Shown piece after piece: positions 4,699-32,622 of a stretch of DNA of 41,467 bases; within the stretch, counting starts at the first letter, position 1; each line of letters opens with the position of its first letter. The notes under the pieces are model-generated. The model had not been told where the DNA came from, made no database searches, and saw only the letters and a list, made by a program, of their open reading frames with translations. The DNA lies in NCBI GenBank assembly GCA_016841675.1, contig JAENYQ010000020.1, positions 1 to 41,467 on the forward strand. The letters are read 5' to 3'. The position numbers and the translations under genes were made by a program. The stretch comes from Desulfotomaculum sp. (GTDB lineage Bacteria; Bacillota; Desulfotomaculia; Desulfotomaculales; Desulfallaceae).

Positions 4699-4699
4699 T

Positions 4700-5839
4700 T
4701 TATTGCCCCCCTTCATCAACCTGTCTGTTAAGACCTTCCAGTCTTAATAAATCTCCCGCTGAGAAGAGCCTCTGTTCAATGACTTTTCTTTGCGTTTCAT
4801 CAATTTCGTTAATAAGTGTAACGCCATCTAGTTTTTCTACTGCCCTCAATGACCTAACCGGCAGGCGGCTAATTAAGTCAGGACTGTGTGTTGTTAATAA
4901 GAGCTGAGAACGGTTACTTGCTTCAAGTAATATATCAGTCAATACGCCCAAAGCACCAGGGTGGATTGTCAATTCGGGTTCCTCAACACATAGCAGGGAC
5001 TTAGGGGCATCTTGATAAAGGGCCGCAAGCAAGCCCAGTACTCTTAAGGTACCATCAGATTCCTGGGAAGCATCAAACCAGTGGTCCTCATTTAAGCCAC
5101 TGTGAAGCAATTTTATAACCAGGTAACCACCAACTTGATGAACTTGTAAATCCTTAATATCGGGAACCACTTTATTTAACGCAGACTTAATATCGGGGAA
5201 CCACTTACTTTCATGCTTTTTCATATTTCTCAATACGCTGGCTAAATTTGACCCATGTTCCTCCAGCGCTTCGGTTCTTCCCGGTTTCTGAGGTTCACGG
5301 ATAGTATTGGGGAATATTGAACAAAAACTCACATTCACTAAAGCCGAGCGAACAAACGAAAATGGCTCAGTCCCTGCAATAGCGCTAAGAACAAATGTGT
5401 CTTCACCCACTTGGGGTGTCAAACCAGTGCTCACCGGTTTAACCGGTATGCCTTTTTCATACTGGTACTCAGCAACTTTTCCCTTCCACTTAACAGTACA
5501 ATACTCTTTTTTTACACTTACCTGACTGCCTCTTTCGCTTTTTAACTCAAAGCCATATATTGCTGTGAAGGGGTTTTTGATTTTATCCCCTTTGATATTA
5601 AATTCTATGGTTATATCATAAGGTTTCTTGGGAGACCACCTGCGCAACATGGCTATACCATGCCTTTTGGTTACAGCCGAATCAAGACCAAATTGCAAAA
5701 TTTCGGATACAGACCTTATAACATCTATAAAATTACTTTTGCCAGAGCCATTTGGCCCCACTAAAACGGTAAGCTTGCCCATTTTTAAAGTAACGTCGCC
5801 AATGCTCCGATAATTTTTTACATGGATTTGAGTAATCAT
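4700..5839 (-). CDS. RecF/OLD-type AAA family ATPase
   Basis: 379 residues of the ABC-like AAA_21/AAA_15 class. The N-terminus ITQIHVKNYRSIGD is the usual RecF-like start; Walker A is GPNGSGKS (residues 28-35); a signature-like ESDGTLRVLGLLAAL stretch, Walker B LLCVEEPE (about 285) and a TTHSPDLI switch (about 312) are intact. It precedes, and is coupled to, the DUF4276 TOPRIM-like gene. ATPase plus TOPRIM pairs of this layout are phage-defence or toxin-type modules (OLD, Gabija, PARIS). The start has GGGAG 8 bases upstream. The exact system is not assigned. Confidence 0.85.
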   Translation of the reverse strand: MITQIHVKNYRSIGDVTLKMGKLTVLVGPNGSGKSNFIDVIRSVSEILQFGLDSAVTKRHGIAMLRRWSPKKPYDITIEFNIKGDKIKNPFTAIYGFELKSERGSQVSVKKEYCTVKWKGKVAEYQYEKGIPVKPVSTGLTPQVGEDTFVLSAIAGTEPFSFVRSALVNVSFCSIFPNTIREPQKPGRTEALEEHGSNLASVLRNMKKHESKWFPDIKSALNKVVPDIKDLQVHQVGGYLVIKLLHSGLNEDHWFDASQESDGTLRVLGLLAALYQDAPKSLLCVEEPELTIHPGALGVLTDILLEASNRSQLLLTTHSPDLISRLPVRSLRAVEKLDGVTLINEIDETQRKVIEQRLFSAGDLLRLEGLNRQVDEGGQ

Positions 5840-16936: not shown

Positions 16937-17024
16937 CATAAAGCGGCGAGGGTCATAAAGCGGCGAGGGTCAGACCCCTTTTAGGAGAATCTGGAAGACC
17001 GGGCAGGTCTTCCAGATTCTCCGG
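16937..17024. repeat. tandem 17-mer plus hairpin repeat
   Basis: CATAAAGCGGCGAGGGT occurs twice in tandem (16937-16953, 16954-16970), followed by GGTCAGACCCC and a hairpin with perfect 17-bp arms (16984-17000 and 17006-17022) around GGGCA. The hairpin is the sister of the one at 7664-7702. Confidence 0.85.
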
Positions 17025-17134: not shown

Positions 17135-18094
17135 TTACTGTGTGATGATCCAAAGTCCATCATTTTTGCGCTTTATTGCAATAAATAAATCATAGCTGTT
17201 AATTTTTTTAATCCCATTTTCTTTGGGCCCTGGATCAAGTAAATAAATGGTTCCGTCATCGGTTAAACCTGTAATTATTGATACATGACCTACATTTTCA
17301 TTGTTTTTATATAAACTTGAATAATTATAGCCACATATAATATGATTCCTTTCAATTAAATTTCTTTCAATTTCTTTTTCGAAAGAAAAATCATTTAGTG
17401 TTGATATTGGTATGTAAATCTCCTTCAGCGGGATACTAAAATTTTGAAAAAAACCATTTAATCCATTCTTCTTAACAGTTATACCCCAATTACTAGGTTC
17501 GTCAGAATAAGTTATATTTTTTAAATCAGTAAAAAACTCAGCTTTATCATAAGGTATACATAACCCAAAGTAATTAGCAATGGATTCCTGATTCATACAA
17601 GACCCTAAACTTGCTTTTAAGATCATTTCTAAAGAAGCCGCCACACATAGATATGGTTTAGCCTGTATTACTGAGTAATTATAATAACTTTTTATTAGCT
17701 CCTTATTGCAGTTTTGGCTATCAATTTCTTTTTTTAAATATGCTAAAGGGTCTTCCCAATTATTAGGTTTTATAGTTTTACCATCAACATCAAAGTGTGG
17801 TTTACCATCAGCCCAAATTTTTTGCATATTAGCATTATGTACAATTTTAAATATTTTATCTGGTTTTATACCCATTTCAACCAATGTCCCTAATGCAAAA
17901 TACATCAAATCTATCATAGCATCAGCTTGTTCATATATATTTTCTGCATTCTTAAACTCTAGTAATTCTTCGAGCATCCATTTATACCTTTTCTCCACTC
18001 TATCACTTTCAAGAACAGACGGATTATTCCTATGCGGGTGTTTAAATTTAATATGAAATTTATTAACTAAATGCCATGAATTGTTTAAACTCAA
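17135..18094 (-). CDS. MazG/PRA-PH-like NTP pyrophosphatase fused to a C39-like peptidase
   Basis: 319 residues, two domains. Residues 1-125 resemble all-alpha NTP pyrophosphohydrolases of the MazG/PRA-PH superfamily: R36, EELLEF (E43, E46), QADAMIDLMYFALGT (D58, D62) and VHNANMQKIW, a metal-binding E/D set that hydrolyses (d)NTPs to monophosphates. Residues 140-319 look like a papain-fold C39_2-type peptidase: QAKPYLCVAASLEMIL (Q144, C150), VGHVSIITGLTDDGTIYLLD (H270, D287). The TTG start has GGAG 8 bases upstream and lies 2 bases after the previous gene's stop. Third gene of an AT-rich operon with a radical SAM protein and a phosphoribosyltransferase-like protein. The fusion suggests nucleotide clearing or sensing coupled to proteolysis (inference). 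Confidence 0.7.
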   Translation of the reverse strand: MSLNNSWHLVNKFHIKFKHPHRNNPSVLESDRVEKRYKWMLEELLEFKNAENIYEQADAMIDLMYFALGTLVEMGIKPDKIFKIVHNANMQKIWADGKPHFDVDGKTIKPNNWEDPLAYLKKEIDSQNCNKELIKSYYNYSVIQAKPYLCVAASLEMILKASLGSCMNQESIANYFGLCIPYDKAEFFTDLKNITYSDEPSNWGITVKKNGLNGFFQNFSIPLKEIYIPISTLNDFSFEKEIERNLIERNHIICGYNYSSLYKNNENVGHVSIITGLTDDGTIYLLDPGPKENGIKKINSYDLFIAIKRKNDGLWIITQ

Positions 18095-18096
18095 TT

Positions 18097-19125
18097 TTAA
18101 TTCTCCTTTGTTTTTATTAAATCGTTCTCTTCTAATTTGCCTTTAAACATATTTATTTGCTGCTTGTCCTCGGTATAAAGATTTAGATACTCTTTATCTC
18201 CTTTTTGGGCATATAAGTCTGCTTTTAGATCCTCATTTAGATCAAAATACCTATATAACTTATAATCCTTTTCACTAAATTTTTTATCTACATCTTCCTT
18301 AGTGTCTGGTCTAAAAAGTATATATGCGTGCTGAACCTTTTCAACATTATATTCTGATAATTGCATAATGTTATTAAACTCATCTATCATTTTTAGCAAG
18401 CTCGAGGCACCTGAGGCATTACAGTCTATAGCTACCCCCCAAAAAGATTTACCCTTTTCATTTTCTTTTTTTAATTTTTTAAATAATTCTTGAGAGCCCT
18501 CGAAATTCATAAGGAATAATTTACTAAATACTTCAGGGTTACTCTGGTCCACTCTAGCCCTAGAATTATCATCTGATGCTTTTCCAATTATTGATATAAT
18601 GCGATTAATTTCAGCGAACTTTTTTCCTAATATAGGGTTGCCATTTTTGGGTGTCAATATGAAATCAGGATATTTGGTATCATAGTTGGATTTTATCAAT
18701 TTGTTAATTAGTATACACATTAAATTAAGATCTTCAGTGTTATGAGATGCCTCCATTGTATTTATATAATAATTGCTTGATACAACAGTCATTTTCCCAT
18801 AATCAAGTTCCTCATCAAATTTGAATATGTACTTTGATAACAAGGCTATTAATTTAGAAACTGGATATTGAAGATTCTCACCGTCTCTCAAGTGAGAAAG
18901 TTTTATTTCTACACTCTTTTTATTTACGCCTAGTTCCTTAAAAACAGATATCAGTAAAGATTCATCATATTTACCATAGATAATCCCAGAATATTTACAA
19001 CCTCTTGGAACCCAACCAACTGCGCGTATTACATCTCTTAATGTATTTATAGTAAGGACAAGCAATATAAATGTAGCAATAACTTCGCCGCTGAATAGGA
19101 AGTCCAAGATAATATTACCTTCCAT
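18097..19125 (-). CDS. membrane-anchored phosphoribosyltransferase-like protein
   Basis: 342 residues. One hydrophobic helix (about residues 13-27) near the N-terminus suggests membrane anchoring with the rest in the cytosol. The middle shows type I phosphoribosyltransferase-like features: PDFILTPKNGNPILGKKFAE (153-172) as a substrate/hood-like element and FWGVAIDCNASGASSLL (228-244) in place of the PRPP-binding loop, with D234 kept but the second acidic residue replaced by C235. It may therefore bind PRPP or a nucleotide without normal catalysis. N- and C-terminal regions are unassigned. Two bases separate its ATG from the upstream radical SAM gene's stop. Family assignment rests on motif reading and is moderate at best. 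Confidence 0.55.
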   Translation of the reverse strand: MEGNIILDFLFSGEVIATFILLVLTINTLRDVIRAVGWVPRGCKYSGIIYGKYDESLLISVFKELGVNKKSVEIKLSHLRDGENLQYPVSKLIALLSKYIFKFDEELDYGKMTVVSSNYYINTMEASHNTEDLNLMCILINKLIKSNYDTKYPDFILTPKNGNPILGKKFAEINRIISIIGKASDDNSRARVDQSNPEVFSKLFLMNFEGSQELFKKLKKENEKGKSFWGVAIDCNASGASSLLKMIDEFNNIMQLSEYNVEKVQHAYILFRPDTKEDVDKKFSEKDYKLYRYFDLNEDLKADLYAQKGDKEYLNLYTEDKQQINMFKGKLEENDLIKTKEN

Positions 19126-19127
19126 AA

Positions 19128-19898
19128 TTAATAAGCTTTCCTCTCTTTATCATAATGATTTTTTATATAATATATTAATTCAGTTTCACAATCAAAGGAG
19201 TGGCAATTAGCATAACTTATATGATGTTTTAAATTATACTTTAAATCGTTGTCTTCAACGGTTTTCCATACATTTCCGCTAAGCCAGTTTATTCTTCTGT
19301 TTACTAATTGATATTTACCCTTAATATAATTTTTAAAAAATTGAGTGCTTTCTGAAACATATAGGTCTCCCAACAAAAATAGACTGCAGTATCTAGATGA
19401 GTCATTAATTATTTTATAATATTCTTCTATTCCTATAAAAGGTAATACCGGCTTAATAGTAACAGACCTAGGCATATTATATTTAAATAGCAGTTCAAGA
19501 GAATTTATTCTGTCCTCATAACTACTTGCATGAGGTTCAATTTCGCTTATTCTAGTAACATTAGTTATTGATATGCTTACCTTGATAAAACCTTTATTTT
19601 TACTTATCAGTTCATTATTAATTATGCTTAAATAACTGATATCGCTTTCTTTAAGGATACCTTTAGTAGAAAAACTTGTTACAATATATTTGCTTGTATT
19701 GTGATAAATATCGTTAATTATGTCTTTATAATCATCTAACATAAATTCGCCATCGCAATTGGGATACACTATATCAAAATTATTATCTAATTTTGTTACT
19801 GTAAAAGGGTTAAAATTTTTATAATTTTCCCATTTCGAAAAACAATATAAACAACCATATGGGCATATTTTATTTGAAGAAAAGAATTTTCTCTTCAT
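19128..19898 (-). CDS. radical SAM protein (SplB-like)
   Basis: 256 residues. The 4Fe-4S motif is CPYGCLYC (C12, C16, C19; CX3CX2C). DGEFMLDDYKDII, then SISITN...ISEIEPHASSYEDRINSLEL and VTIKPVLPFIG, match the core of spore-photoproduct-lyase-like radical SAM proteins (COG1533 type): EP....R, ikP.lP. An extra Cys pair (CHSFDC) near the C-terminus may bind metal. The 5'-deoxyadenosyl radical substrate is unknown; with a phosphoribosyltransferase-like and an NTP pyrophosphatase partner, a nucleotide or nucleic-acid substrate is plausible. GGAGG sits 4 bases before the ATG; first gene of the operon, behind a clear promoter. Confidence 0.8.
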   Translation of the reverse strand: MKRKFFSSNKICPYGCLYCFSKWENYKNFNPFTVTKLDNNFDIVYPNCDGEFMLDDYKDIINDIYHNTSKYIVTSFSTKGILKESDISYLSIINNELISKNKGFIKVSISITNVTRISEIEPHASSYEDRINSLELLFKYNMPRSVTIKPVLPFIGIEEYYKIINDSSRYCSLFLLGDLYVSESTQFFKNYIKGKYQLVNRRINWLSGNVWKTVEDNDLKYNLKHHISYANCHSFDCETELIYYIKNHYDKERKAY

Positions 19899-20182: not shown

Positions 20183-20896
20183 CTATCTTAGTTCCACAAC
20201 ATCCACATCCAGCCCCTGCCTATTTACTTCAAACCTATCTGATGTTAATAAATCTCCCAATGTTATATTTAAATTAAAAGGGAATAAAGACGGAGCGCTA
20301 ATTAAACTTTGATAGGCTATTGTTTCTTGAGATAGACAGCGCAAATAACATTCCAGCAGCCAGAGTTTGAGTTCATCGTTATTGATATCTATCTTATTGG
20401 CAACAATATATTCACCTTTAGTGTTGGTGTCAATAATTACTCCCCAAGAAGCTAGTGAACGAATGAGCCGTTGCACTGCCCATTTTAAGGTATTTCTGTC
20501 TCCCCAGCCTTCAATTATACGTTTATGCACCTGTAGCAAGGTTAACTCATCTTGCAGCGATAATAACTTACCTACAATAGCAGTAACATCCTTGAATAAT
20601 GGGTAAGCCAGTAGGCACATTCCCCAATGAATAGCAATTCTTTCTTCAAACGCTACTTTACTAATAAGCTGCAAGGCATTATCCCGCAGTGGAACAACTT
20701 CTTCAGGCACCGTTACCCATATTCTTAATAAAACAGTAATGTGTTTCCGCCTGGATTCGTTACCATCTATCTGTTGCGATAGTAAACTGTCCATTTGTTC
20801 TTTAATATATTTAACATCATTTTCCTCTTTTTGCAAAAAAGCTATCTTATCCATCCAATCTAGTTGAACTTTCTTATCCATGCCAATTCTTTTCAA
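20183..20896 (-). CDS. brxA: BREX type 3 protein BrxA (DUF1819-like)
   Basis: About 237 residues, all-alpha in appearance. The segment RRKHITVLLRIWVTVPEEVV and PLRDNALQLISK...ERIAIHWGMCLLAYP fits BrxA/DUF1819-type small DNA-binding proteins, and the position after pglZ is where brxA lies in type 3 BREX. In other BREX types BrxA binds DNA; its exact task is unsettled. The start is uncertain: TTG 20896 overlaps the pglZ stop (TTGA) and has GGAAG about 10 bases upstream; GTG 20917 and ATG 20881 are alternatives. Last gene of the BREX operon; no clear terminator follows. Sequence-only recognition is moderate; the context makes it likely. Confidence 0.7.
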   Translation of the reverse strand: MKRIGMDKKVQLDWMDKIAFLQKEENDVKYIKEQMDSLLSQQIDGNESRRKHITVLLRIWVTVPEEVVPLRDNALQLISKVAFEERIAIHWGMCLLAYPLFKDVTAIVGKLLSLQDELTLLQVHKRIIEGWGDRNTLKWAVQRLIRSLASWGVIIDTNTKGEYIVANKIDINNDELKLWLLECYLRCLSQETIAYQSLISAPSLFPFNLNITLGDLLTSDRFEVNRQGLDVDVVELR

Positions 20897-22836
20897 CGAT
20901 GTTTTTCTTCCTTCCACAGTTTGATAAAGGGCACAACAATCTCTTCCATACTAATGCCACCGTGGCTTACAACACTTTTGCCCTCGGCGATATAAGCAGT
21001 TTCATTCTCCGCTAGCAATATGTGAAGGTCATCGGGCAAACCATATTTATTAGGCCATTCAATAGATTTTGTTTCTTCCATTGCTTCACGCATAAACTCC
21101 GATGCCTGGTATATTCTAAATCGTTCACCCTTGCTAGTAACTAACGCCCCTTGGTTAAGCTTACCTTGGCCAACCGCCTCAATGTTACCATGATCCGAAG
21201 TTAAATAAACCCTAAATTTATTTTCAAATAGCTTTTCTAATAAAGCTTGTAGGTAACCCCCCTGCATCCAAAGCTCTATATCCTGGTGCATGCCTTTAGT
21301 TCCCAGCTGTTGGCCGTGAACCATCTTATCAATTTTATCAACAACCAGACCCAAGATTTTTGTTTTAGGCTCGGATAACAAGGTATCTAATTCCGGACTA
21401 TCTCCATCTCCCAAACCTTTAACCAGTTTTATATTAAAAGCTTTAAAGCCCTCATTCTCCCAAAACCGCTTCCAAAGGTGTTCCTCTTTGCTTGTGTTAA
21501 ATAAAGAATCTTTAAAATACCGTGGCGGCTCACCGGCAAAAATCGCCTGGCGCGATACCGAGGTCATAGTAGGCACCCAGGCAAAGGCAGAACCTTCTTC
21601 AAACTTAACACCGTATGACTTTAGCAGGTATTTTTTAACCAGCACCCATTGATCCCAGGCCATACCATCAAGAACTACTAAGGCCAGCCTCTGCCAGTCA
21701 GCCTTTCTCCCCTGGTAGCCTAGGAATTTTGGAATATGATGCACCATAACTGGGTTTTTAATATATGGCAAATTGCTTAACGTGCCGTATTTAGCCAACA
21801 ACCATTCCTTAAACAGCTTGCTAAGTTCCTGATATATGTTATTAAACTGAGCCTTCATGTCCTGAGACAAATTGGCAATTTCATATAATGTTATTTTAGC
21901 TTCCGCTAAAATAGGAGCGACCTTCAGCCAGTGCTGATAAGAGAGGTTCTCCTGGTACAATAATTTATCTAACTTTTTAATGAGTAGTTTTAACTTAGTT
22001 TCATCATGGTAAGTAGCCTGATAGCCGGTAATTCCTGCTTTAGCCCATTCGGGTAACTTATCCACGCCCTGATTAACAGCAACCGGTGTTAATATGCCTT
22101 CATTAAACAGGTTATCTATATAAACCCGGATATCGTCATGTTCAAAAGGTACCAGCGCCTGGCTAGCACCTTTTATTTTGCCCTGTATAAAAAGGGACCA
22201 CTGTTCCTGTAAAAAGCTCCAGAAATCCTCCCGGTTGGCTAGTAAAACTGACCCATTTATGCCTGTATAAAATTCCTTGCCCTGCAATTTTTCATCTATG
22301 AATGCTACTAAGTCGGCTGGTAATTGCACCTTACGATAATGTAAAGAAAGCAAAACCCTGGTAAACTGTTCGAGATTCTTTATTAAGCTTGGCACCAATT
22401 CATAAATATGCTGCAGCACAAACTCTCTGGTACCCTGATCCCCCAGCGTTACCCCAGGACATTCAGAATAAGCCTGGTACAAAGCACCTATAAATTCAGT
22501 ATCTAATTGCTTTAGCACTGGGTAACTAAACCTGGGGAAAAACTCCGCCAAACTCAAGCTAACGGCTACCCCAGCCTGCTGCACATCATAAGGCAAGCTG
22601 TTTAAGTTATACTCCCGCACTTGCACAATTAATTTGCGCTCAGCTTGGTCACGAAACTCTGCTTCATATACATACCGAAAAGCCACCGGGTCGTTATGCT
22701 CCACAATTTCAAAGTCTTTACCGGTCAAATAACCCAGGATACTTTCTTCCTGTAGAATCCCATCCGGGTCAGCCACAAGAATGATTCTGTGCATATCTAA
22801 GTTGAACTTTTCCAATACCCTCTGGTACCAAAGCAT
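20893..22836 (-). CDS. pglZ: BREX PglZ, alkaline-phosphatase-fold protein
   Basis: About 647 residues. The C-terminal half has the PglZ/alkaline phosphatase core: LVVLDGMAWDQW (about 392), AWVPTMTSVSRQAIFAGEPP, YLTSDHGNIEAVGQG (about 547) and SVVSHGGISMEEIVVPFIK (about 627), supplying the Asp, Thr and His metal ligands of the fold. The N-terminal half (helical) is typical of BREX PglZ. PglZ is one of the two universal BREX proteins and works with PglX in the modification/exclusion complex. The ATG at 22836 has GGAGGG 8 bases upstream and follows the brxHII stop by one base; a TTG at 22854 is unlikely. All metal residues appear present. Confidence 0.93.
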   Translation of the reverse strand: MLWYQRVLEKFNLDMHRIILVADPDGILQEESILGYLTGKDFEIVEHNDPVAFRYVYEAEFRDQAERKLIVQVREYNLNSLPYDVQQAGVAVSLSLAEFFPRFSYPVLKQLDTEFIGALYQAYSECPGVTLGDQGTREFVLQHIYELVPSLIKNLEQFTRVLLSLHYRKVQLPADLVAFIDEKLQGKEFYTGINGSVLLANREDFWSFLQEQWSLFIQGKIKGASQALVPFEHDDIRVYIDNLFNEGILTPVAVNQGVDKLPEWAKAGITGYQATYHDETKLKLLIKKLDKLLYQENLSYQHWLKVAPILAEAKITLYEIANLSQDMKAQFNNIYQELSKLFKEWLLAKYGTLSNLPYIKNPVMVHHIPKFLGYQGRKADWQRLALVVLDGMAWDQWVLVKKYLLKSYGVKFEEGSAFAWVPTMTSVSRQAIFAGEPPRYFKDSLFNTSKEEHLWKRFWENEGFKAFNIKLVKGLGDGDSPELDTLLSEPKTKILGLVVDKIDKMVHGQQLGTKGMHQDIELWMQGGYLQALLEKLFENKFRVYLTSDHGNIEAVGQGKLNQGALVTSKGERFRIYQASEFMREAMEETKSIEWPNKYGLPDDLHILLAENETAYIAEGKSVVSHGGISMEEIVVPFIKLWKEEKHR

Positions 22837-22837
22837 A

Positions 22838-25615
22838 TTAACAGCCCTCCACAAAAACTAAACATACCGGAGTCAATTCAGGGATAAAATTCTCCTTGTT
22901 CGCCAAACGCTCAATCCAAAGCTGTTCTTCTCGGTCCAACTGTTTAAGCCGGTGCTCCCTTACCCCTTTTAGTCCTAAACGGTTAATTGCCTCCCGTCGC
23001 AGCCGAAAGGCCAGGGCCGTCTTTTCTTTCTCCTGCATAAGCCGTTGCCGGTGCAGCTGTTCAATTTCCTTATATAAACTATAGCCATGTTGTTGTATTT
23101 TTTCTTCCAACAATTCCAAAATAACATCACTTTCTTTATAACCGGTGGAATACACCTTTTGGTTTTTATCCATAAGCCTGTCCCATAAATGATTGGCAGT
23201 TGGCAAATAAAACTTACCCGCTTCGGTCATAAAAACCGGGAAAATCCTTTCTAACCTGTGACCCGCATAGCTTAGACCTATTGCCCAAAGAGCCCAATAG
23301 CCCTGTACGCCTTCCGGCAAGTCCTTAAGCTGCAATACCGGCACCGGTTCACCGGGAACAAAGATCTGCCGGGCCATTAATATCTTTTGAATTCTTTCAT
23401 CCTGCAACGTTAGTGTTTTATCACTGACCCAATCAGATCTTTGCCCCTGAAAGGTTATATCTTCGGCAACGGTTCCATCAGGCCATACTAAATCGTAACC
23501 TGTTAATTTTGGCGTTACCGTTCCCCCGTTGGCTTGTAAATAGTTTACAGTCATGGTTTCTAGCCAACATCCTATGGGCAGGCCACTTACTTGTTCCACC
23601 AAACTTATATCCAATTCCTTTTCATCTTTAATAATTTCTCGCACCTGATACAAGTTCTCCGCTTTTTCGCGCACTTCCTGAGCTAAACTGTCAAGCTCAC
23701 GTTCTATATTGCCCGGAGCCAATATAGAAGCAACATAGGCCTTGGTGAAATCAACCTCTGCCTGGCCAGAATCCAATACATCCCCGGATTTGTCCACCCC
23801 AAACTCTTTCCAGATAATTTTTAACTTTTCCTCTAAAACTTCCTGTACCCTATATTCCACGGTATTAGACAAGATAAAGTTATATACTTTAACTACCTGC
23901 TTTTGACCAATCCGGTCAACTCTACCAATGCGCTGCTCCAGCCGCATGGGGTTCCACGGCAAATCATAATTAACAACTACATGACTGAATTGCAGATTTA
24001 AACCTTCACCACCGGCCTCAGTGGAAATAAGTAACTGGCAGTGGCCGGCAAAATCCTGCTGCGCGGTCTGCCGCTCATCCAGCGACATGGCGCCATTGAG
24101 TATGGCTACCTTAAAACCCTTTTCACTAAAAAAATCTGCTAACAGCTTCTGTGTAGCCACAAATTCAGTAAAAATTAAAACTTTAACTTGTTCGTCATTC
24201 TCTTGTAATTGTACCTGGTGGATGATATCCAACAATTTTTCTGCTTTAGCGTCTACATAGCTTAATTCACACTGCCGGGCTAGGGCCAGTAAGCTTTCTA
24301 CTTCAGCCCGTTCGTTTTTTAAGCCTTCCAGGCTCTTGCCAAAGAGTTCTTCTACCATTTCCTGGCTGTCTAATTCCCAAAAATCTACGTCTGGGTCAAC
24401 GTAATTAATGGGAACTTGCTTCAAGACCTCTAGTCGTTTTTCCAACGCTTCCCGAATTGCCCTGGTGCTGCTAGTCACCATACGTTGCATCAGCACCATT
24501 AAAAAACCAATATAATTTTTCTTTTCCAGTAAAGCCTGGTTGTAACCCAGCCTTACGTAATCAGTAACTGCGTGGTAAAGTTTTTCCTGCTCGGCATGGC
24601 GGGCTTCCCATTCCACCGGTAGCATTTTGGTTATGCGGGGCTGAAAAATTTTACAGCCGTGCGCATCCAGCGCTTCCCTTTTCTCCGTACGAATTACATA
24701 TGGGGCTACCTGTTCCTTAACAATGGCATTGGCATTGGGAAAAGCCTCACTGTCAATTAACTTCATTAACCTGTAAAAGCCATCTGTTTTTCCCTGGTGG
24801 GGAGTGGCAGTAAGTAGTAATAGGTACGGAGTTGACTCTGATAACGCCTTACCCAACTTAAAACGGGCCACCACCTCAGTGCTGCCGCCCATTCTGTGTG
24901 CTTCATCCACCACCACCAAGTCCCAGCCGGCGTCTATTACATTATAAAACCGATCCTGATTGTAACGGGCCAACTGCTCCTTGCTCCAACCCTTGCGCGC
25001 TTCAACGGGCTTAATGGCGTCCATCGGGCACACCACCTGGTTGTACTGTCGCCAGGGATTCGTTTGCCCGGGCATAAGGCTTAAGGCTGCTAATTCCCCA
25101 GGGATCAGCAAATGAAAGTTTTCGTTAAAGTGATTTTGCATTTCCTGAACCCACTGGGCCACCAAGCCCTTAGGGGTCACAATCAATATTCTTTTTACCA
25201 AGCCCCGCAATTTTAGCTCCCGAATAATCAGCCCTGCTTCAATGGTTTTCCCTAAACCAACTTCATCGGCCAGCAAATAGCGCACCCGGTTCCCTGAAAT
25301 AGCTCTATTTAAAGCATATAACTGGTGAGGCAAAGGTATAACACTGCCTTCCGCCGGTGCCAGCAGGTTGTCCTTGGCTAAAGCATCCTTAATCCGGGCC
25401 GCGGCAATTTTGTATGAAAGTTCGGGCAAAGAAAATTGCTGCCGTTGCTGTAGTGCAGTTAAAGCTTCTTGCTTTACCCATTGAACACCGTTAGCCCGGG
25501 GCAACCAGACCATATAATTTATGTAACCCCATATTTCTTTGTACTCAATAATGCGGGCAGGAGCTTGGTGCATAACGCTCCAAACCCACTGCCCGGTCAC
25601 AAATCTTTTCGCCAT
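22838..25615 (-). CDS. brxHII: BREX type 3 helicase BrxHII (SNF2-like)
   Basis: 925 residues, superfamily 2 helicase of SNF2/HepA type: motif I LLADEVGLGKTIEAG (about 118), motif II VVVDEAHRMGG (about 237), motif III LLLTATPHQG, motif V/VI STEAGGEGLNLQ and EQRIGRVDRIGQ (about 563). The C-terminal 300 residues, rich in helices and heptad-like charged stretches, are specific to this group. Type 3 BREX loci carry this helicase between pglXI and pglZ. The ATG comes one base after the pglXI stop, so the genes are coupled. All ATPase motifs are intact. Likely acts on DNA in the exclusion complex or in limiting phage DNA replication. Confidence 0.92.
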   Translation of the reverse strand: MAKRFVTGQWVWSVMHQAPARIIEYKEIWGYINYMVWLPRANGVQWVKQEALTALQQRQQFSLPELSYKIAAARIKDALAKDNLLAPAEGSVIPLPHQLYALNRAISGNRVRYLLADEVGLGKTIEAGLIIRELKLRGLVKRILIVTPKGLVAQWVQEMQNHFNENFHLLIPGELAALSLMPGQTNPWRQYNQVVCPMDAIKPVEARKGWSKEQLARYNQDRFYNVIDAGWDLVVVDEAHRMGGSTEVVARFKLGKALSESTPYLLLLTATPHQGKTDGFYRLMKLIDSEAFPNANAIVKEQVAPYVIRTEKREALDAHGCKIFQPRITKMLPVEWEARHAEQEKLYHAVTDYVRLGYNQALLEKKNYIGFLMVLMQRMVTSSTRAIREALEKRLEVLKQVPINYVDPDVDFWELDSQEMVEELFGKSLEGLKNERAEVESLLALARQCELSYVDAKAEKLLDIIHQVQLQENDEQVKVLIFTEFVATQKLLADFFSEKGFKVAILNGAMSLDERQTAQQDFAGHCQLLISTEAGGEGLNLQFSHVVVNYDLPWNPMRLEQRIGRVDRIGQKQVVKVYNFILSNTVEYRVQEVLEEKLKIIWKEFGVDKSGDVLDSGQAEVDFTKAYVASILAPGNIERELDSLAQEVREKAENLYQVREIIKDEKELDISLVEQVSGLPIGCWLETMTVNYLQANGGTVTPKLTGYDLVWPDGTVAEDITFQGQRSDWVSDKTLTLQDERIQKILMARQIFVPGEPVPVLQLKDLPEGVQGYWALWAIGLSYAGHRLERIFPVFMTEAGKFYLPTANHLWDRLMDKNQKVYSTGYKESDVILELLEEKIQQHGYSLYKEIEQLHRQRLMQEKEKTALAFRLRREAINRLGLKGVREHRLKQLDREEQLWIERLANKENFIPELTPVCLVFVEGC

Positions 25616-25616
25616 T

Positions 25617-28199
25617 TTAACCTTCCGTTCTGGTTAGGGCATTGTTATAGTACATTAACAAAGATACGTCATCCTGGATAATTGATTCAGGGATTCTCTG
25701 TGCTACCTTCACAATAGTATGGTACTCTTTATTTTTCCAGCAAAACTTAAACCCAGCCCGCACCGATTCTGACCGAAATAGTTTCAGTTTGCCTTTACCT
25801 TCTTTATATAGTTCAAACTCCCTAAGTAAGGCCTTTTCACGCAGTTTTTCTAGGTCGGTTTGTTTGTTGATGTCAGGTACGTACCAGCTACCGTCCTCGT
25901 CCTGTAAAAAATTTTGGTCTAATATTTCGGATAGCTCAAGCTGCTTCTCCCATCGCACATACTTAGCTTCCTTTAAGAATTGCGGGGTTAGTTCAGCAAG
26001 TGTTTGTAGTTTATTTTCTAATTTGGACCGCATCCACTGTATGGCGGATCTTTCGTCCTGGATAAACAAAGAAAGTTGACCAACACCTTGGGCTAACGCC
26101 CTTTTTTGCTCATACTCCGGTACCTGTTGCGGCAGGAAGTACATACCATCTCGCTCGGGAAACCGCTGGTGCAGTCCCATGTAAAATTCGGCAGCCCCCA
26201 TTGGTATTGTGTAGCCGTTTTGCAGGTGGAAGGCCACCATGCGGTCATAAAGCATATAGTTTTGCCTTTCGGCAAGTACCTCTATTAAGTTATCACTAGT
26301 CACCACCACGGGTAATTGTTCCAAGTGTTGTTTAACGAATTCCCATACTCCTTCCTCTGTACCGGCTTTGGCAATGAATTTTACAATAAAATTAGCTTTT
26401 GGTTTATAAGCTGAAACTACCAAATCTTCCTTCATAGCAGATGTGGTTGTTATTTGCTTAAAACTACCTTGCTTTTTATTGAGAACTCGGACATCAGCTA
26501 CGATAAAGCCAGCTTTAAGTAGAGCATCCTGTATAGCATTCCAAATAGAATTTTTAGAGTTATGGAAAACCATTGTCAACCAACGCCCGGGTTTCAAAAT
26601 ACGATACATTTCTTTGAAACAATTATCCATAATTAACCGATATTCCAAAAGTCCTTTACCTTGCGATTTGTTTATAATTGCTTCCTGATTATTATTAGTG
26701 ATAACTTTTAACCATGCTTCCCAAAAAAAGTTTAATTCAGAATACATTAAGTTATCACCAAATGGTGGGTCAGTAAAAACATAATCACAAGAATTATCGT
26801 TTAAGAACTTAAAGCTATTCATGCTCTGATTTGCAATTACTACATCCTTTTTGGTGAACTGTCTCATTTTATTGAGAATACCTTTTAAGTTCCTTATTTT
26901 ATTACCTATTATATAGCCTAGAGAAACATCAACAACCTGGGAACCTATATATAATGTACCGCTTAAATATTGATTAACTTGTGAGTAGTGAGTAGGCACA
27001 TATCTTGCAATTTTACTCATGCCCAAAATCGATTGTTCGAAGGTATAAAGAATATATCTTTTTAAGTCAATATCAACTTTTTCTATTAAACTAAAAACTT
27101 TTGCTAAACTAAATAAAGCTCTTTTTGTATAAAAATGATGTACATGAGTTATACCAGCATGTATTCCTGATCTCCATGTATCACCCCACCTTTGACCTTT
27201 AAACATAAATCTTTCAGTAGGGTACCAATAAGGAATATCCATGCTCTCAATTTTATCAATAAGGTCATGGTCAAATCCTTCCGGATCTTTTTCAAACCTT
27301 TTGTTACCCAGCGAATAATTAATCAGCACCGGTACCTGCTTTGCATGGCGTATAGTTTCATTAATATCCTTGTCAAACTTGGTTACCCAGGCACGCTCCA
27401 TATTACGTTTGTTTAGCATGGCTTTACAATGGGGGCATAAAAAATCTTTATTAACTTTACCTTTTTCTTTTTCTACTGCCGCATTATAAAATATAACTTC
27501 TTCACTACACTGCGGACATACGAATACATCAGACCAAACGGTGTAATTAATCCTCCCCAACACAGGATTACCATCCGCATCCTTCAGTATTTTTCCGTTA
27601 AAAGTATGTTGCGTTTGGTACATCCACCCGTATTCCTTTTCTACTTCTAATAGAATACGGTTGGCTTCCCTCTCAAATTCCTCTACGTCCACTGGGTTAT
27701 TGTAATTATAGGCAATAAAGGTGGCTACTGGGGATAAATCACACAAAATAGCTTTTCTGGTTCCCCATTTAACCGAGCCCATTTCCTGCACCAGATGCGT
27801 CTTAAAGGCCGGGTCAGGATTACCGCACATTTGGGCCGCCACCCCGGTCATCCCTGTGCCGCAAAACCCATCAAATACAATATCTCCCGGTTCAGTATAA
27901 TGCAAGATATACCGCATGATGGCCTTATGCGGAACCTTAGTATGGTAGGAGTGTGCGTTATAAATAGGATCATTCTTACCCTCCGTCACATCAGCCGCAA
28001 AGGGTTCTCGGTGATAGTCATCGGTGGCGTCATAGGGCTTGCCGTGTTCCTTAATAAAATCTTGAATAAACGGGTTGGGGCATGCGGTGTAATAAGGCGG
28101 AGCCGACAGCGCAATGATGTCTTCATCCCGCCCTATGGGAAAACCTTCGATATGCCTTACACTGTCTAGTAATTCTTTAGTTAACTTTTTCTTTTCCAT
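25617..28199 (-). CDS. pglX: BREX type 3 DNA methyltransferase PglXI
   Basis: About 860 residues, a COG1743-like adenine-specific methylase with zinc ribbon. An early APPYYTACPNPF stretch (about 35-45), SAM motif I DIVFDGFCGTGMTGVAA (about 106-122), two CxxC pairs (FVCPQCSEE and FLCPHCKA), and catalytic motif IV TDPPFGDN (about 478) are all visible. In BREX this enzyme methylates one strand of a short asymmetric host motif to mark self. The start is ATG 28199 (GGAG 11 bases upstream); GTG 28211 is possible. The gap to the brxC stop is 16 bases. A middle section (about 26760-27300) is AT-richer than its surroundings and may have been exchanged by recombination, as expected for specificity. Confidence 0.9.
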   Translation of the reverse strand: MEKKKLTKELLDSVRHIEGFPIGRDEDIIALSAPPYYTACPNPFIQDFIKEHGKPYDATDDYHREPFAADVTEGKNDPIYNAHSYHTKVPHKAIMRYILHYTEPGDIVFDGFCGTGMTGVAAQMCGNPDPAFKTHLVQEMGSVKWGTRKAILCDLSPVATFIAYNYNNPVDVEEFEREANRILLEVEKEYGWMYQTQHTFNGKILKDADGNPVLGRINYTVWSDVFVCPQCSEEVIFYNAAVEKEKGKVNKDFLCPHCKAMLNKRNMERAWVTKFDKDINETIRHAKQVPVLINYSLGNKRFEKDPEGFDHDLIDKIESMDIPYWYPTERFMFKGQRWGDTWRSGIHAGITHVHHFYTKRALFSLAKVFSLIEKVDIDLKRYILYTFEQSILGMSKIARYVPTHYSQVNQYLSGTLYIGSQVVDVSLGYIIGNKIRNLKGILNKMRQFTKKDVVIANQSMNSFKFLNDNSCDYVFTDPPFGDNLMYSELNFFWEAWLKVITNNNQEAIINKSQGKGLLEYRLIMDNCFKEMYRILKPGRWLTMVFHNSKNSIWNAIQDALLKAGFIVADVRVLNKKQGSFKQITTTSAMKEDLVVSAYKPKANFIVKFIAKAGTEEGVWEFVKQHLEQLPVVVTSDNLIEVLAERQNYMLYDRMVAFHLQNGYTIPMGAAEFYMGLHQRFPERDGMYFLPQQVPEYEQKRALAQGVGQLSLFIQDERSAIQWMRSKLENKLQTLAELTPQFLKEAKYVRWEKQLELSEILDQNFLQDEDGSWYVPDINKQTDLEKLREKALLREFELYKEGKGKLKLFRSESVRAGFKFCWKNKEYHTIVKVAQRIPESIIQDDVSLLMYYNNALTRTEG

Positions 28200-28215
28200 G
28201 TCATTGCGCACTCCG

Positions 28216-31200
28216 TTATTCTAAAATTATCCTTACTTTGGCAGTTTCTTTACCGGTCAAATTATTATCCAAGTATTTGATAAACCGCCCCTTTAACTCC
28301 TCAATGGTGCAGGGGCTACCGCCGGTTAGTAGGGCGGTTTTTATTTCGTCCAGAGTCATGGTTACCTTAACCAGGCCGCGCAGCACCTCCTGGACGGCTT
28401 TAATAAATTCAATGTCTAAGTTAACAGGCAAAGCTCTGGTGCTTAAAAACTCCTCTACCCTACTTCTGGCGCTTTCATTGGCAATCAGCGTTATATTGCT
28501 GCGCACAATGGGGTCTTCCAGGTTTTCCAGCAGCGTGTTGTTCCATTCCGTGATCATTGTCTCCAGGGCGTCTTCCAGCTGCTCCAACCGGCCGTGCACG
28601 GGCTTGGCACTATCTTCCCGAGCGGGGTTAAAGGAACAATGCGGGCATATAGGAACGGTTTGTAGGTCTTCTTTGACTAGGCTGAAACAGGGCTTCAACT
28701 TGCCCAGTTCATCGTTCCATTCTTGCAATTGCCCCTTGGGCATAAGTTCGATTTGCTTTAATTTGTTTAATTTTTTTAAGTCCTCGTGCTGTAATAGTTT
28801 TTTCTTTTTTGTATCGTCATGGACATCCAGCCGGGACTTCTTATGCAATTCCAAATACTTATTAATATAGTTTTCCTTTATACTCTTTAGGCGGGTGATT
28901 ATTTCTTTCTTGATAGTATTATCTACTTTGCTACCAGTAACCAAGTCGGCCAGTTGCCGGCGCTGGTTATGCAGTTCCTGCACCCACTGGTTATCACCAG
29001 GCAGTGCCATTTCCGCCTGCGATACATAAGCGGCCAGGTTGTCGGTTTCTCTCTTCAAAGCCAGTAATCCAACTAGCCTAATCATGATTTGTTTGGCAAC
29101 TGCTTGTTCTTGGATATCCTTGATCGAATAGCGAAAATTTTTTAATTTGGCCGGTGTTTTATAAACCTGCAGAGTTTCCCAAAAGCTTTTGAAACTATCT
29201 AATTTTTTTCTGGCCTGTTCCTTTTCCGCTTCGGTTAAAAAGTTAATGCCAAAGCTTTGAATACCGCTGGTAACCTGAGGTTGTAACGTGGCCACTTTTT
29301 GTACCAGGGTAGTAACTTCCTTTTGCATATTTTGTACGGCCTCTTCCCTGGTGGCCGGGTTGACAATTTGCCCCGGTGGCAGCCCTAAAAATTCAAAGAG
29401 CACCTTTAATATTGGGAGCGGCAAATCCTTGGGCGGCTCGATATGTTTAAAATCAATAATATCTTTCAGTGGTTTTTTGGCCAAGTCCTCAAGGTTGGAG
29501 GCATCAAACTTGCCGCCTGGTAAGGCCAAGGTTATGGCCCCGTCATAAACCAGGGACACCAGTAGCACAGCCACCCACTCGGGCTCTAGTCGGTAAGCTA
29601 TGGCATAGTCAATGGTGTCAACAGGTTGAATCAACTCGTTGCGGTTTACCACCTGGCCGGCACCTTTTTTATTTAGCCGGTCTGCAATAAACTTGGTGTA
29701 ACGTGAATTTAATGGCTTTAAGCTGTTGCCTTCCAAGAGTTCCAGGGCGTCCAGCATTTTGGCCCCAATATCGGTTTTTATGTTGGTGGCTATCCAGCGT
29801 ATGGCATCCTGGGCATACTGGTCCCGGTTTTTTGAGGTAACTTGCACGGTAAAGGTCGGGTAATCCGGCGTCTGTTCCTGAAAATAGGTAGATAGCAGGT
29901 TTGCTGCAGCAGTATTGACCAGATCTCTGGTATCCTTACTGGAGCCGGCACCTTTAAGCCAGTTAACAAACTTATGGGTAACACCTTTATAAGTAATTTC
30001 AAAAGCCGAGGTCAGGTTATTTTTAATCCAATTGGCTACATCTTTGCGGTATTGGGCTGCTTTATCGGTATAATTTTTTTTGCTTTCACCCTGGGAGATA
30101 CCAGCCATTTCCACCGCTCCGGCGTAGAACTTAAGTGCAGTTATAAATTTGTCGTCTTTCTTTATTAAATTTAAGAAGACTTCATCTTGTTTTTTCTCAT
30201 CTTCAAATTCATGCTTGCCAAACGGCTTTGTAAAATAGATATAGAAGTCCCTGGGAGGCTGCGCAGTGGATCGCTCATTGGGCGCGCCGAAAAACAACCA
30301 GCCGAGGCGGGAGGTTTTCTTTTCCTTCCACTCCAGTTCATATTCCCAAACCCGGTGGCCTGTAACCATAGATTCACCCAATTCTACAATCTGGGTGAGG
30401 GCATTAAAGTAATATCTATTTAGGGTGTCTTCTGAAAGCGTGTCTGCTTTCTTTTCGATTTCAGAATCATAGTCAATATCCTTTTTGATATCCAGGTAAT
30501 ACTGCGCATTTTCGCTGTTTTGGGAAATAAACTGGCCGCTAACGGTCTTGCGGATTTCCCTTAAAACGGTTTCCAGCGTGGTAAGTAAAAAGTCGGCGTC
30601 TTCCTCAGGCATAGGCAAGTGTAGGCAAAGACCGTCCCTTAGATTAGCGGCAGTAAGGCCAACTGGTAAATTTATATCCCCGGTGGTCAAACGATGAACG
30701 CTCAAAGCGTTAATAATGCGCAAGGCAGTAGGTTTATATAATGGTTGCGTAAAGGAGGTATTAATTATACTCTCCAGGCGCTGACTTTTATCCACAATGG
30801 TTCGTACATCCGGAATGCTTCTTAACGAAGGGTTATCTAAAATAAATTCCCAGTAAGAATCATAGGAAAAAAGGCCCGGCTCGTCCTCCGGCACGGCTTG
30901 CTGGAGCAGTTTGCCGATGGTTTGGCTTAAGGTTTTTAATACTTCCCTTTTTTCGGCCACATAAATGCTTTCAAATGTTTTTAGGTATTCGGGATGCACC
31001 GGAAACAAGGTGACAAACTCCTCGGCTCTTTCAGCCATGTTTTCGTAAAGTTGATAAAATTTCTCCAGGTGGGAGCGAATTAAAGCCTTTTGACGGTCAT
31101 CCTTTTTTAACAGCCGGTTGGCTACCACAAAGGCTACGTCTTCCCGGGCGATGCGCAGCTGTTCAAAACGGGCCTTGACCCGATTTAAAGTTGCCGCGAC

Positions 31201-31887
31201 AAATTGAAAACTGTTGTTATCAAACAAGGATTCCTGAACACCGGCAATGAATCTAAACCTGGTGTTTTTGCAAACCTCACCTATTTCACGCAAAAAGTTA
31301 AGGTCTAAAACCACTTCCTGTTCGTTTCTGGTGCGCAGGTAGTCCAGCAATTCATCCACCACCACCAGAAATCCCTGGTTTGGGTACAGTTCTTCAAATT
31401 GGGCCATCATTTCTATTAAGTTGTCCTTGGTATTGGGTACCTGGTCCATCGGCGGAAAAACATATTCTACATCAATAGTTTCTAGAAAGTTAGTCATGCC
31501 CTGACAAATAATTTCCCGCAGCGGCATTTTTGAGGCGCCGATTTCTGTGCGAAATACCTTAAACTTCCCAGCCACATTGGCAGCATGTTCTTTTACCGAG
31601 TTATTTTGGATTAAGTCCGGAGTGTCACCATGCTCACAAATAGTGGAGATTACAGACATTAAGTGCGATTTACCCGTTCCATAATTTCCCACCACAAGCA
31701 AGGCTTTGTTATCTTTAGGTTCGTGAAACTGTAAATGCGGCAGCATAACATCTAGTAGTTTTTCGGCCATGCGGTCGGATATAACAAACGTTTTAACCAG
31801 CCTTTGGGCTTCGGCATAATCATTTGCTTCTACTACCTGTACTACTGTTTCAATGGGATCAAATTGTACTAAATCACCATATTTCAA
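28216..31887 (-). CDS. brxC: BREX ATPase BrxC (DUF6079 type)
   Basis: 1223 residues. Walker A GNYGTGKSH (67-75) in an ORC/STAND-like context, Walker B GFLVVVDELLDYL (about 172-184), followed by a sensor region ...RFIAGVQESLFDN. A late zinc-binding pair (PICPHCSFNP) lies about residue 1080, between long coiled-coil-like helices. BrxC (PglY) is the large ATPase of BREX and is needed for both methylation and phage exclusion. This long DUF6079-like form goes with type 3 loci. The start is TTG 31887, with AAGGAA just upstream and GGGGG further up, 13 bases beyond the brxF stop. No disruption. Confidence 0.92.
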   Translation of the reverse strand: MKYGDLVQFDPIETVVQVVEANDYAEAQRLVKTFVISDRMAEKLLDVMLPHLQFHEPKDNKALLVVGNYGTGKSHLMSVISTICEHGDTPDLIQNNSVKEHAANVAGKFKVFRTEIGASKMPLREIICQGMTNFLETIDVEYVFPPMDQVPNTKDNLIEMMAQFEELYPNQGFLVVVDELLDYLRTRNEQEVVLDLNFLREIGEVCKNTRFRFIAGVQESLFDNNSFQFVAATLNRVKARFEQLRIAREDVAFVVANRLLKKDDRQKALIRSHLEKFYQLYENMAERAEEFVTLFPVHPEYLKTFESIYVAEKREVLKTLSQTIGKLLQQAVPEDEPGLFSYDSYWEFILDNPSLRSIPDVRTIVDKSQRLESIINTSFTQPLYKPTALRIINALSVHRLTTGDINLPVGLTAANLRDGLCLHLPMPEEDADFLLTTLETVLREIRKTVSGQFISQNSENAQYYLDIKKDIDYDSEIEKKADTLSEDTLNRYYFNALTQIVELGESMVTGHRVWEYELEWKEKKTSRLGWLFFGAPNERSTAQPPRDFYIYFTKPFGKHEFEDEKKQDEVFLNLIKKDDKFITALKFYAGAVEMAGISQGESKKNYTDKAAQYRKDVANWIKNNLTSAFEITYKGVTHKFVNWLKGAGSSKDTRDLVNTAAANLLSTYFQEQTPDYPTFTVQVTSKNRDQYAQDAIRWIATNIKTDIGAKMLDALELLEGNSLKPLNSRYTKFIADRLNKKGAGQVVNRNELIQPVDTIDYAIAYRLEPEWVAVLLVSLVYDGAITLALPGGKFDASNLEDLAKKPLKDIIDFKHIEPPKDLPLPILKVLFEFLGLPPGQIVNPATREEAVQNMQKEVTTLVQKVATLQPQVTSGIQSFGINFLTEAEKEQARKKLDSFKSFWETLQVYKTPAKLKNFRYSIKDIQEQAVAKQIMIRLVGLLALKRETDNLAAYVSQAEMALPGDNQWVQELHNQRRQLADLVTGSKVDNTIKKEIITRLKSIKENYINKYLELHKKSRLDVHDDTKKKKLLQHEDLKKLNKLKQIELMPKGQLQEWNDELGKLKPCFSLVKEDLQTVPICPHCSFNPAREDSAKPVHGRLEQLEDALETMITEWNNTLLENLEDPIVRSNITLIANESARSRVEEFLSTRALPVNLDIEFIKAVQEVLRGLVKVTMTLDEIKTALLTGGSPCTIEELKGRFIKYLDNNLTGKETAKVRIILE

Positions 31888-31900
31888 TTCCTTATCCCCC

Positions 31901-32365
31901 TTAAACCTGTAAAATGGTGCAATCCTGTTCGGTTAAACCCTGGTAGCTCAGAAACTCAGGGTGCCCCTGGCTGGCAAAAGTAAGCCTGCCGCCATCAAAT
32001 TCCCCGGTCCAGCCCGCAACTATGGTTTTATTACGGCTGATGGTTTGCAACGCTTTAAGTGGATCAACCTGTAGTTCGGGTAAAAATAGCAATTCTATTT
32101 GGTCAAGAAAAACAACGTCCTCATTATGTGTCCTAATAATACCGTTCAATGAAGTTAGAATCTGAGCAGCCCTTTTGCGAGCGGGAATGTCTACAAGTAT
32201 ACCTGCTAAGGCTAAGTTAAGATTTATATAGGGGTAGTTTAGTGAAGTGCTTGTCTGTTGCAGGAATTTTGTTTTGGTCTCAGCAAAGATGCTTAAAATA
32301 AGAACAAGTCTATAATATTTACTTTTGGCTGCTTCGATTTTTTGGGTTTGAACTTGAAGTTGCAA
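31901..32365 (-). CDS. brxF: BREX type 3 protein BrxF with degenerate P-loop
   Basis: About 154 residues. KYYRLVLILS...KTKFLQQ, LNYPYINLNLALAGILVDIP, EDVVFLDQIELLFLPELQVD and RLTFASQGHPEFLSYQGL match the short P-loop protein BrxF, the marker gene of type 3 BREX. Here the Walker A loop reads SIFAETKT instead of a GxxxxGKT: both glycines are lost, only KT remains. The Walker B-like VVFLDQIELL is intact. The TTG start at 32365 has AGGGGTG 8 bases upstream and gives the usual length; an upstream TTG at 32407 has no site. First gene of the BREX operon. Confidence 0.85.
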   Translation of the reverse strand: MQLQVQTQKIEAAKSKYYRLVLILSIFAETKTKFLQQTSTSLNYPYINLNLALAGILVDIPARKRAAQILTSLNGIIRTHNEDVVFLDQIELLFLPELQVDPLKALQTISRNKTIVAGWTGEFDGGRLTFASQGHPEFLSYQGLTEQDCTILQV

Positions 32366-32469
32366 AGGTTTTTCACCCCTATAGTATATTGTTCCACAAT
32401 TTAACAATAATAAAAAGTTTTATTACTAAATAATTAAATATTTAATTCGACAATTTTTGCAACGATTGC

Positions 32470-32502
32470 AAAAAACGGGGCTGCTATTGATAGCTACCCC
32501 GT
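32470..32502 (-). terminator. Rho-independent terminator of the helicase-nuclease gene
   Basis: On the minus strand ACGGGG..GCTAT..ATAGC..CCCCGT forms a long stem with a small internal loop, followed by six T. It lies 120 bases beyond the helicase stop and 105 bases before brxF, so brxF-brxA is probably transcribed from its own promoter. TTAATTCGACAATT occurs twice around it (about 32442 and 32562). Confidence 0.8.
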
Positions 32503-32622
32503 CAAATTATTTTTAAACTACTTGATAAGCTCATACCAAATCCTCCAGAAGTTATTGGTTAATTCGACAATTGCTACATTTTACCTTCAGTTAATATTTA
32601 CCACACCGTGTATATTTTGATA

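What the first reader, a model, noticed from the sequence alone, without database searches (positions are those of the whole stretch)
17135..19898. Three-gene radical SAM / phosphoribosyltransferase-like / MazG-peptidase operon
Seen: three AT-rich minus-strand genes with 2-base gaps behind one promoter. They encode a SplB-like radical SAM protein (CPYGCLYC), a protein with one N-terminal membrane helix and a PRPP-loop-like motif (GVAIDCNASGASSLL), and a MazG/PRA-PH-like domain fused to a C39-like cysteine peptidase. Family knowledge: radical SAM plus nucleotide enzymes occur in antiviral chemistry (viperins), and MazG-like enzymes deplete or police nucleotides. Inference: a membrane-tethered nucleotide-sensing system whose output is nucleotide hydrolysis and/or proteolysis. 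Location directly behind a BREX locus supports a defence role. I know of no named system with this set.
Basis: partly seen in the sequence, partly recalled or inferred. Interest (0 to 1): 0.87.

Follow-up and report, generated by a model that had tools for sequence, protein, structure and literature searches.

The report
Radical-SAM and membrane phosphoribosyltransferase gene cassette
Beside a known anti-phage locus sits a three-gene cassette whose first two genes, an enzyme related to a DNA-thymine repair enzyme and a membrane-anchored nucleotide-building enzyme, recur side by side in three other distant genomes, which points to an undescribed pathway that alters nucleotides, possibly against phages.

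Summary
Three AT-rich minus-strand genes (28-31% GC) with 2-bp gaps lie at 17135-19898, inside a real defence island (BREX and HEC-01). No promoter was found. Gene A is a spore-photoproduct-lyase (SPL)-like radical SAM protein; a fourth cysteine, conserved in four homologues, aligns with SPL's catalytic Cys140. Gene B has an N-terminal membrane helix and an orotate-phosphoribosyltransferase-like (OPRT-like) domain. Gene C is a MazG/PRA-PH pyrophosphohydrolase fused to a C39/C70-like cysteine peptidase.

The three genes recur in the same order in an 'Acetivibrio' MAG (36-37% identity for A and B), there without the peptidase. Two further genomes carry only the rSAM-PRTase pair. A fifth, distant PRTase lies between ThyX and HIT/MazG genes. 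The core is therefore rSAM plus membrane PRTase; MazG is optional and the peptidase is an add-on. No library or paper that I could reach describes the pair.

Best explanation: a membrane-tethered, pyrimidine-directed nucleotide-altering pathway (confidence 0.45). Its 'nucleotide sensing with hydrolysis or proteolysis output' is untested, and a defence role rests only on location in this one genome: none of the other loci shows a defence system.

The parts
19128..19898 (-). Gene A: SPL-like radical SAM protein, 256 aa
   Evidence: ORF; profile of four homologues best matches spore photoproduct lyase structures, E=1.6e-5; L006 homologue passes Pfam SPL cut-off
19842..19865 (-). CxxxCxxC 4Fe-4S motif (CPYGCLYC, aa 12-19); C12, C16, Y18, C19 invariant in four homologues
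19755..19757 (-). Cys48, invariant in four homologues; aligns with catalytic H-donor Cys140 of Geobacillus SPL
18097..19125 (-). Gene B: N-terminal membrane helix plus OPRT-like phosphoribosyltransferase, 342 aa
   Evidence: ORF; homologue L008 hits Pfam Pribosyltran 2e-5; four-row profile best PDB hit human OPRT E=0.0025; Foldseek top hits OPRT (low-confidence model)
19042..19113 (-). Predicted transmembrane helix of gene B (aa 5-28)
   Evidence: KD19 2.26; at least 1.98 in all five homologues
18625..18660 (-). PPi-loop-like motif ILTPKNGNPILG of gene B (aa 156-167)
18400..18438 (-). PRPP-loop-like motif GVAIDCNASGASS of gene B (aa 230-242); D-C in three homologues, canonical D-D in L008
17135..18094 (-). 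Gene C: MazG/PRA-PH plus C39/C70-like peptidase fusion, 319 aa, TTG start
17714..18088 (-). MazG/PRA-PH domain of C (aa 3-127); EExxE at aa 42-46, ExxD at aa 55-58
   Evidence: Pfam PRA-PH 2e-16; 56% identity to L006 MazG; PDB 3nl9 7.5e-20
17138..17707 (-). Papain-like peptidase domain of C (aa 130-319) with Q/C, H and D candidate catalytic residues
   Evidence: Pfam C70 2.8e-4 and C39_2 4.2e-4; fold model uninformative
20183..36327 (-). Context: BREX genes BrxA, PglZ, BrxHI, PglX, BrxC, BrxF, then PDC-S68
   Evidence: PADLOC
4066..5839 (-). Context: HEC-01 A/B defence pair
   Evidence: PADLOC

Best explanation
A and B are the two enzymes of one membrane-tethered pathway that chemically alters a pyrimidine base or nucleotide. 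B (OPRT-like, anchored by one N-terminal helix) makes or breaks the bond between a base and ribose-5-phosphate using PRPP. A (SPL-like rSAM) generates a 5'-deoxyadenosyl radical and modifies the pyrimidine ring or its methyl group, with Cys48 returning a hydrogen atom as in SPL. MazG, when present, cleaves the NTP or dNTP form to the monophosphate, either feeding the pathway or removing its product from the pool. In the window lineage a papain-like peptidase was fused to MazG as an extra regulatory or effector part. Shown: the protein families, the conserved pair and trio, motif conservation, the predicted membrane helix. Inferred: a common substrate, pyrimidine specificity, direction of reaction. 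Guessed: that in this genome the pathway serves anti-phage defence (I put that alone at about 0.35).
For: Pair adjacent in four genomes with similar divergence of A and B. A related to SPL, a pyrimidine-acting rSAM: PDB profile E=1.6e-5, Pfam SPL above cut-off, fourth Cys aligned with Cys140/141, whose role is documented in PMC3742179. B OPRT-like by three routes: Pfam Pribosyltran on L008, HMM best PDB hit human OPRT, Foldseek top hits OPRTs. MazG active-site motif intact; its relatives sit beside NrdIEF, ThyX/DHFR and a phage ribonucleotide reductase. A distant TM-PRTase lies in a ThyX-PRTase-HIT-MazG operon. Defence island: BREX and HEC-01.
Against: No substrate is known. B's PRPP loop has D-C instead of D-D in three of four pair loci, and the L072 copy is degenerate, so B may be a binder and not an enzyme. 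MazG is absent next to the pair in L008 and L065. The AlphaFold models are low confidence (pLDDT 41 and 32). Other loci show no defence genes. SPL-like kinship does not prove a nucleobase substrate.
Confidence: 0.45

Rival explanations
1. Housecleaning or salvage: the pair repairs or recycles damaged pyrimidine nucleotides (for example saturated or cross-linked thymine), MazG sanitises the triphosphate, and the BREX neighbourhood is incidental.
For: SPL itself is a thymine-lesion repair enzyme (PMC3742179); MazG family is linked to dNTP metabolism genes; no defence genes seen at L006, L008, L065 or L072.
Against: Very sparse distribution (single hits per hundreds of genomes) fits an accessory mobile cassette better than housekeeping; the membrane anchor is unexplained; in the window it is a low-GC insert in a defence island.
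Confidence: 0.27
2. Sensor/effector defence unit: B is a non-catalytic membrane receptor for PRPP or a nucleotide, A makes the ligand, and MazG-peptidase is the effector that depletes dNTPs or cleaves proteins.
For: Location beside BREX and HEC-01; PRTase-like effectors exist in type III retrons (PMC12548924) and a PRTase in a validated system (PMC13092281); atypical PRPP loop; peptidase fusion present here.
Against: Peptidase absent from L006, and the pair stands without MazG in L008 and L065, so the effector is not part of the core; no regulatory logic is visible.
Confidence: 0.18
3. Peptide (RiPP) maturation cluster: rSAM modifies a peptide and a C39-type peptidase matures it.
For: rSAM plus C39-like peptidase is a common RiPP pairing (general knowledge).
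Against: No plausible precursor ORF in or around the operon, peptidase fused to MazG and not to a transporter, rSAM closest to SPL, peptidase absent from relatives.
Confidence: 0.04

Closest known systems
Spore photoproduct lyase (SplB, Pfam PF20903)
   Same: CxxxCxxC core, downstream Cys aligned with Cys140/141, Tyr between the 2nd and 3rd cluster Cys; profile E=1.6e-5
   Different: About 250 aa against about 340; 22-36% identity even within the new group; Tyr after the third Cys is Phe in three of four; partner is a PRTase; no evidence for DNA substrate
Orotate phosphoribosyltransferase (PyrE/UMPS type I PRTase)
   Same: Best structural and profile match of B; PPi and PRPP loops in the right order
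   Different: N-terminal membrane helix plus about 60-80 extra residues, D-C PRPP loop, linked to rSAM and not to pyr genes; Pfam does not recognise B
MazG-like / DR2231-type dNTP pyrophosphohydrolases (PF01503)
   Same: EExxE...ExxD, 56% identity to L006; PDB 3nl9 E=7.5e-20
   Different: Fused to a papain-like peptidase in the window
Viperin-type radical SAM antiviral nucleotide synthesis
   Same: Works like, if the best explanation plus defence is right: rSAM making an altered nucleotide
   Different: A resembles SPL and not viperin; no nucleotide kinase partner; a PRTase partner instead; no tested activity
Type III retron PRTase-like effectors
   Same: PRTase-fold protein in a defence context (PMC12548924)
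   Different: No reverse transcriptase, ncRNA or winged-helix partner found here; membrane helix and rSAM partner
PA0069 / Rv2578c rSAM families
   Same: Weak NCBIfam matches of A (1e-7 and 2e-3)
   Different: Far below curated cut-offs (31 against 360 bits; 17 against 430)

Membership tests
Spore photoproduct lyase | CxxxCxxC radical SAM motif | tested here: met
Spore photoproduct lyase | Fourth catalytic Cys (141 Bs / 140 Gt) | tested here: met
   Cys48 invariant and aligned with Cys140, but alignment confidence around it is modest
Spore photoproduct lyase | Radical-relay Tyr right after third cluster Cys (Y99 Bs) | tested here: not met
   Phe in window, L006, L065; Tyr only in L008
Spore photoproduct lyase | Pfam SPL model above cut-off | tested here: inconclusive
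   L006 homologue passes (29.3 vs 27 bits); L065 and L008 below; window protein not listed at E<1
Type I phosphoribosyltransferase (OPRT-like) | PRTase fold | tested here: met
   L008 Pribosyltran 2.3e-5 but 24.2 bits against a cut-off of 26.3; profile 2wns E=0.0025; Foldseek 2wns prob 0.87 on a poor model
Type I phosphoribosyltransferase (OPRT-like) | Acidic pair in PRPP loop ([DE]D..TG.[TS]) | tested here: inconclusive
   D-C..SG.S in three, D-D..TG.S in L008, degenerate in L072
MazG / PRA-PH | EExxE...ExxD metal site and Pfam score | tested here: met
   60.5 bits vs 21.3; motif intact
C39/C70-like peptidase | Pfam match above cut-off | tested here: inconclusive
   C70 21.3 vs 19 bits but over 34 residues only; C39_2 21.4 vs 24
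C39/C70-like peptidase | Papain-like fold | tested here: inconclusive
   AF2 pLDDT 32
Any named anti-phage system | Match to PADLOC models | tested here: not met
   no hit for A, B, C at E<=0.01
Any named anti-phage system | Protection against phage | not testable with these tools
   needs plaque assays
Viperin | 3',4'-dehydration of CTP | not testable with these tools
   A is SPL-like by profile; a viperin model was not compared separately

The most novel reading that the evidence does not exclude
A new class of nucleotide-altering immunity: an SPL-like radical SAM enzyme and a membrane-anchored PRTase make a modified pyrimidine nucleotide (viperin-like in effect, unrelated in origin) that blocks phage replication, with MazG and a peptidase as added modules.
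Probability: 0.22. Interest if true: 0.88.

Novelty: categorically new. Interest (0 to 1): 0.62.

Why it matters
If the pair works on one substrate, it joins radical SAM chemistry to a membrane-bound PRTase, an enzyme partnership I found in no library or paper searched. In defence form it would be a second, independent route to antiviral nucleotides beside viperin; in repair form, a new nucleotide-pool lesion pathway. Either is directly testable with purified proteins.

Tried and rejected
Single-protein scans of viral contigs with A, B and the peptidase domain, motif-based scans, and A/B tblastn of plasmids and phages found no relative of the PRTase or peptidase and no close relative of A. For the one genome-collection scan I used alignments in which variant rows were artificial (the real protein with randomised positions and plausible substitutions in the motifs), purely to make the search pattern degenerate; the hit L006 was confirmed by tblastn against the real protein (E=5e-51). 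No conclusion rests on the artificial rows, and alignments A5-A10 contain real sequences only. Weak genome hits L011-L016 and L071 were judged chance: short segments inside long unrelated reading frames, or interrupted by stops. hhalign of the PRTase group against HPRT, PyrR and XPT profiles was not above shuffled controls (one search used a wrong global flag); a third PRTase group scored 14.7% and 6.4% for the two query versions, against a shuffled maximum of 2.3% made with the second version. Both AlphaFold models are poor; only the Foldseek ranking of the B model is used, as supporting evidence. RiPP reading rejected for lack of a precursor. MazG tree: window and L006 fall together with Parabacteroides (95/92) but not as exclusive sisters, so MazG may have been recruited more than once.

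Full report
1. Observation. The three ORFs are at the stated coordinates on the minus strand (A 19128-19898, 256 aa; B 18097-19125, 342 aa; C 17135-18094, 319 aa, TTG start), separated by 2 bp each. They form a 28-31% GC block between BREX genes of about 37-47% GC and a 42-52% GC duplicated region. The scan shows no minus-strand promoter-like site in the 285-bp gap before A, and hit numbers in the region are at chance level, so 'one promoter' is unproven; a single transcript is likely from spacing alone.

2. Context. Upstream on the same strand lie BrxA, PglZ, BrxHI, PglX, BrxC, BrxF and a PDC-S68-like protein; HEC-01 A/B lie at 4066-5839. The trio therefore sits in a genuine defence island. 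None of A, B or C matches PADLOC.

3. Families. C: PRA-PH/MazG at residues 10-89 (E=2.1e-16), nearest solved structures 3nl9 and DR2231, EExxE...ExxD intact; the C-terminus matches C39_2 and C70 weakly (4e-4, 3e-4), with Cys/His/Asp candidates in place. A: weak Radical_SAM in Pfam. B: no Pfam match.

4. Relatives. A single genome-collection scan found L006 ('uncultured Acetivibrio' MAG; PRTase best segment 36% identity, E=5e-51). L006 has rSAM (251 aa), TM-PRTase (350 aa) and MazG (128 aa) in the same order with 3- and 22-bp gaps. Identities: A 36%, B 37%, MazG 56%. L006 lacks the peptidase. A two-row profile then found L008/L009 (E=1.1e-4): a TM-PRTase of 281 aa next to a 251-aa SPL-like rSAM inside a capsule cluster, no MazG. 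The adjacency was not used in the search, so it is independent confirmation. B versus L008 gives blastp E=3e-9; the rSAMs of L006 and L008 4e-10. A three-row profile found L065 (E=2e-51): TM-PRTase 351 aa followed by rSAM 258 aa, flanked by a surface protein and rpsF-ssb-rpsR; a MazG 69% identical to that of L006 lies on another contig of that genome. A four-row profile found L072 (E=1.3e-5), where a TM-PRTase with a degenerate PRPP loop sits in ThyX-PRTase-HIT-MazG. An rSAM of the group occurs once in each of the four pair genomes apart from one weak second hit, and not in the L072 genome. All searches together show the cassette to be rare.

5. What A and B are. The four-row rSAM profile has SPL as its best PDB match (E=1.6e-5); the L006 protein passes the Pfam SPL cut-off. 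Invariant residues include C12, C16, Y18, C19 and C48. C48 aligns with the Cys of FEAACTSD; numbering from the cluster cysteines gives Cys140 of Geobacillus SPL, the hydrogen donor to the thymine radical (PMC3742179). The Tyr equivalent to Bs Y99 is Phe in three of four, so the SAM-recycling relay of SPL is probably not kept (inference). For B, L008 matches Pribosyltran (2.3e-5 but 24.2 bits, below the 26.3-bit cut-off), the four-row profile has human OPRT as best PDB hit (E=0.0025), and Foldseek of a poor model (pLDDT 41) ranks human OPRT first (prob 0.87) and Burkholderia OPRT next. Each is weak alone; together they make an OPRT-like PRTase likely. All five homologues have one N-terminal hydrophobic helix (KD19 1.98-2.46), against at most 1.15 in the rSAMs.

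6. Function. Shown: families, conserved pair and trio, conserved motifs. Inferred: A and B share a substrate, because they travel together with similar divergence. Inferred: the substrate is a pyrimidine, because SPL acts on thymine, OPRT on orotate, relatives of this MazG sit with ribonucleotide reductase, ThyX and DHFR genes, and a distant TM-PRTase sits beside ThyX. Guessed: antiviral purpose in this genome. The peptidase has been seen once only and cannot be part of the core mechanism.

7. Rivals: repair/salvage, sensor/effector, RiPP; see the separate entries. The repair rival is serious because none of the other loci shows a defence system, although L006 is only a short contig.

8. Novelty. 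No named system, PADLOC or PHROG family, or open-access paper found describes rSAM plus membrane PRTase. Limits: subscription papers, including a survey of nucleotide-targeting immune effectors, were not held. The enzymes are members of known superfamilies; the assembly is what is new. 'Categorically new' refers to the assembly and carries that uncertainty.

Noticed in passing
window 9109-12108 and 13653-16686: A 3.0-kb direct duplication, 98.3% identical, each copy carrying an OB/HD-domain protein and a WYL-domain regulator, ending just downstream of the trio.
   Followed up: partly
L072 3880-7266 and L003 1691-6396: Two unrelated genomes carry ThyX - X - HIT-domain - MazG operons (X is a TM-PRTase with a degenerate PRPP loop in L072, an AAA ATPase in Parabacteroides L003, followed by DHFR). 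Looks like an undescribed thymidylate-linked cassette.
   Followed up: partly
L017 (Agrobacterium tumefaciens pAt1) 3247-8945: A distant homologue of the L008 rSAM (tblastn 4e-8) in a cluster with two OMP-decarboxylase-family genes, a NUDIX hydrolase and two aminotransferases, next to a dTMP kinase: possible pyrimidine-derived metabolite cluster.
   Followed up: partly
window 7642-7703, 12985-13046, 13376-13437, 16962-17023: REP-like imperfect palindromes (GGGGTCTGACCCC / TCTGGAAGACC type), the last one directly behind gene C.
   Followed up: no
window 4066-5839: HEC-01 A/B-like pair (OLD-type AAA ATPase plus partner), a second defence system in the island.
   Followed up: no
gene B PRPP loop, window 18400-18438: Cys replaces the second acidic residue of the PRTase PRPP loop in three of five homologues (DCN.SG.S), an unusual and apparently conserved change.
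   Followed up: partly
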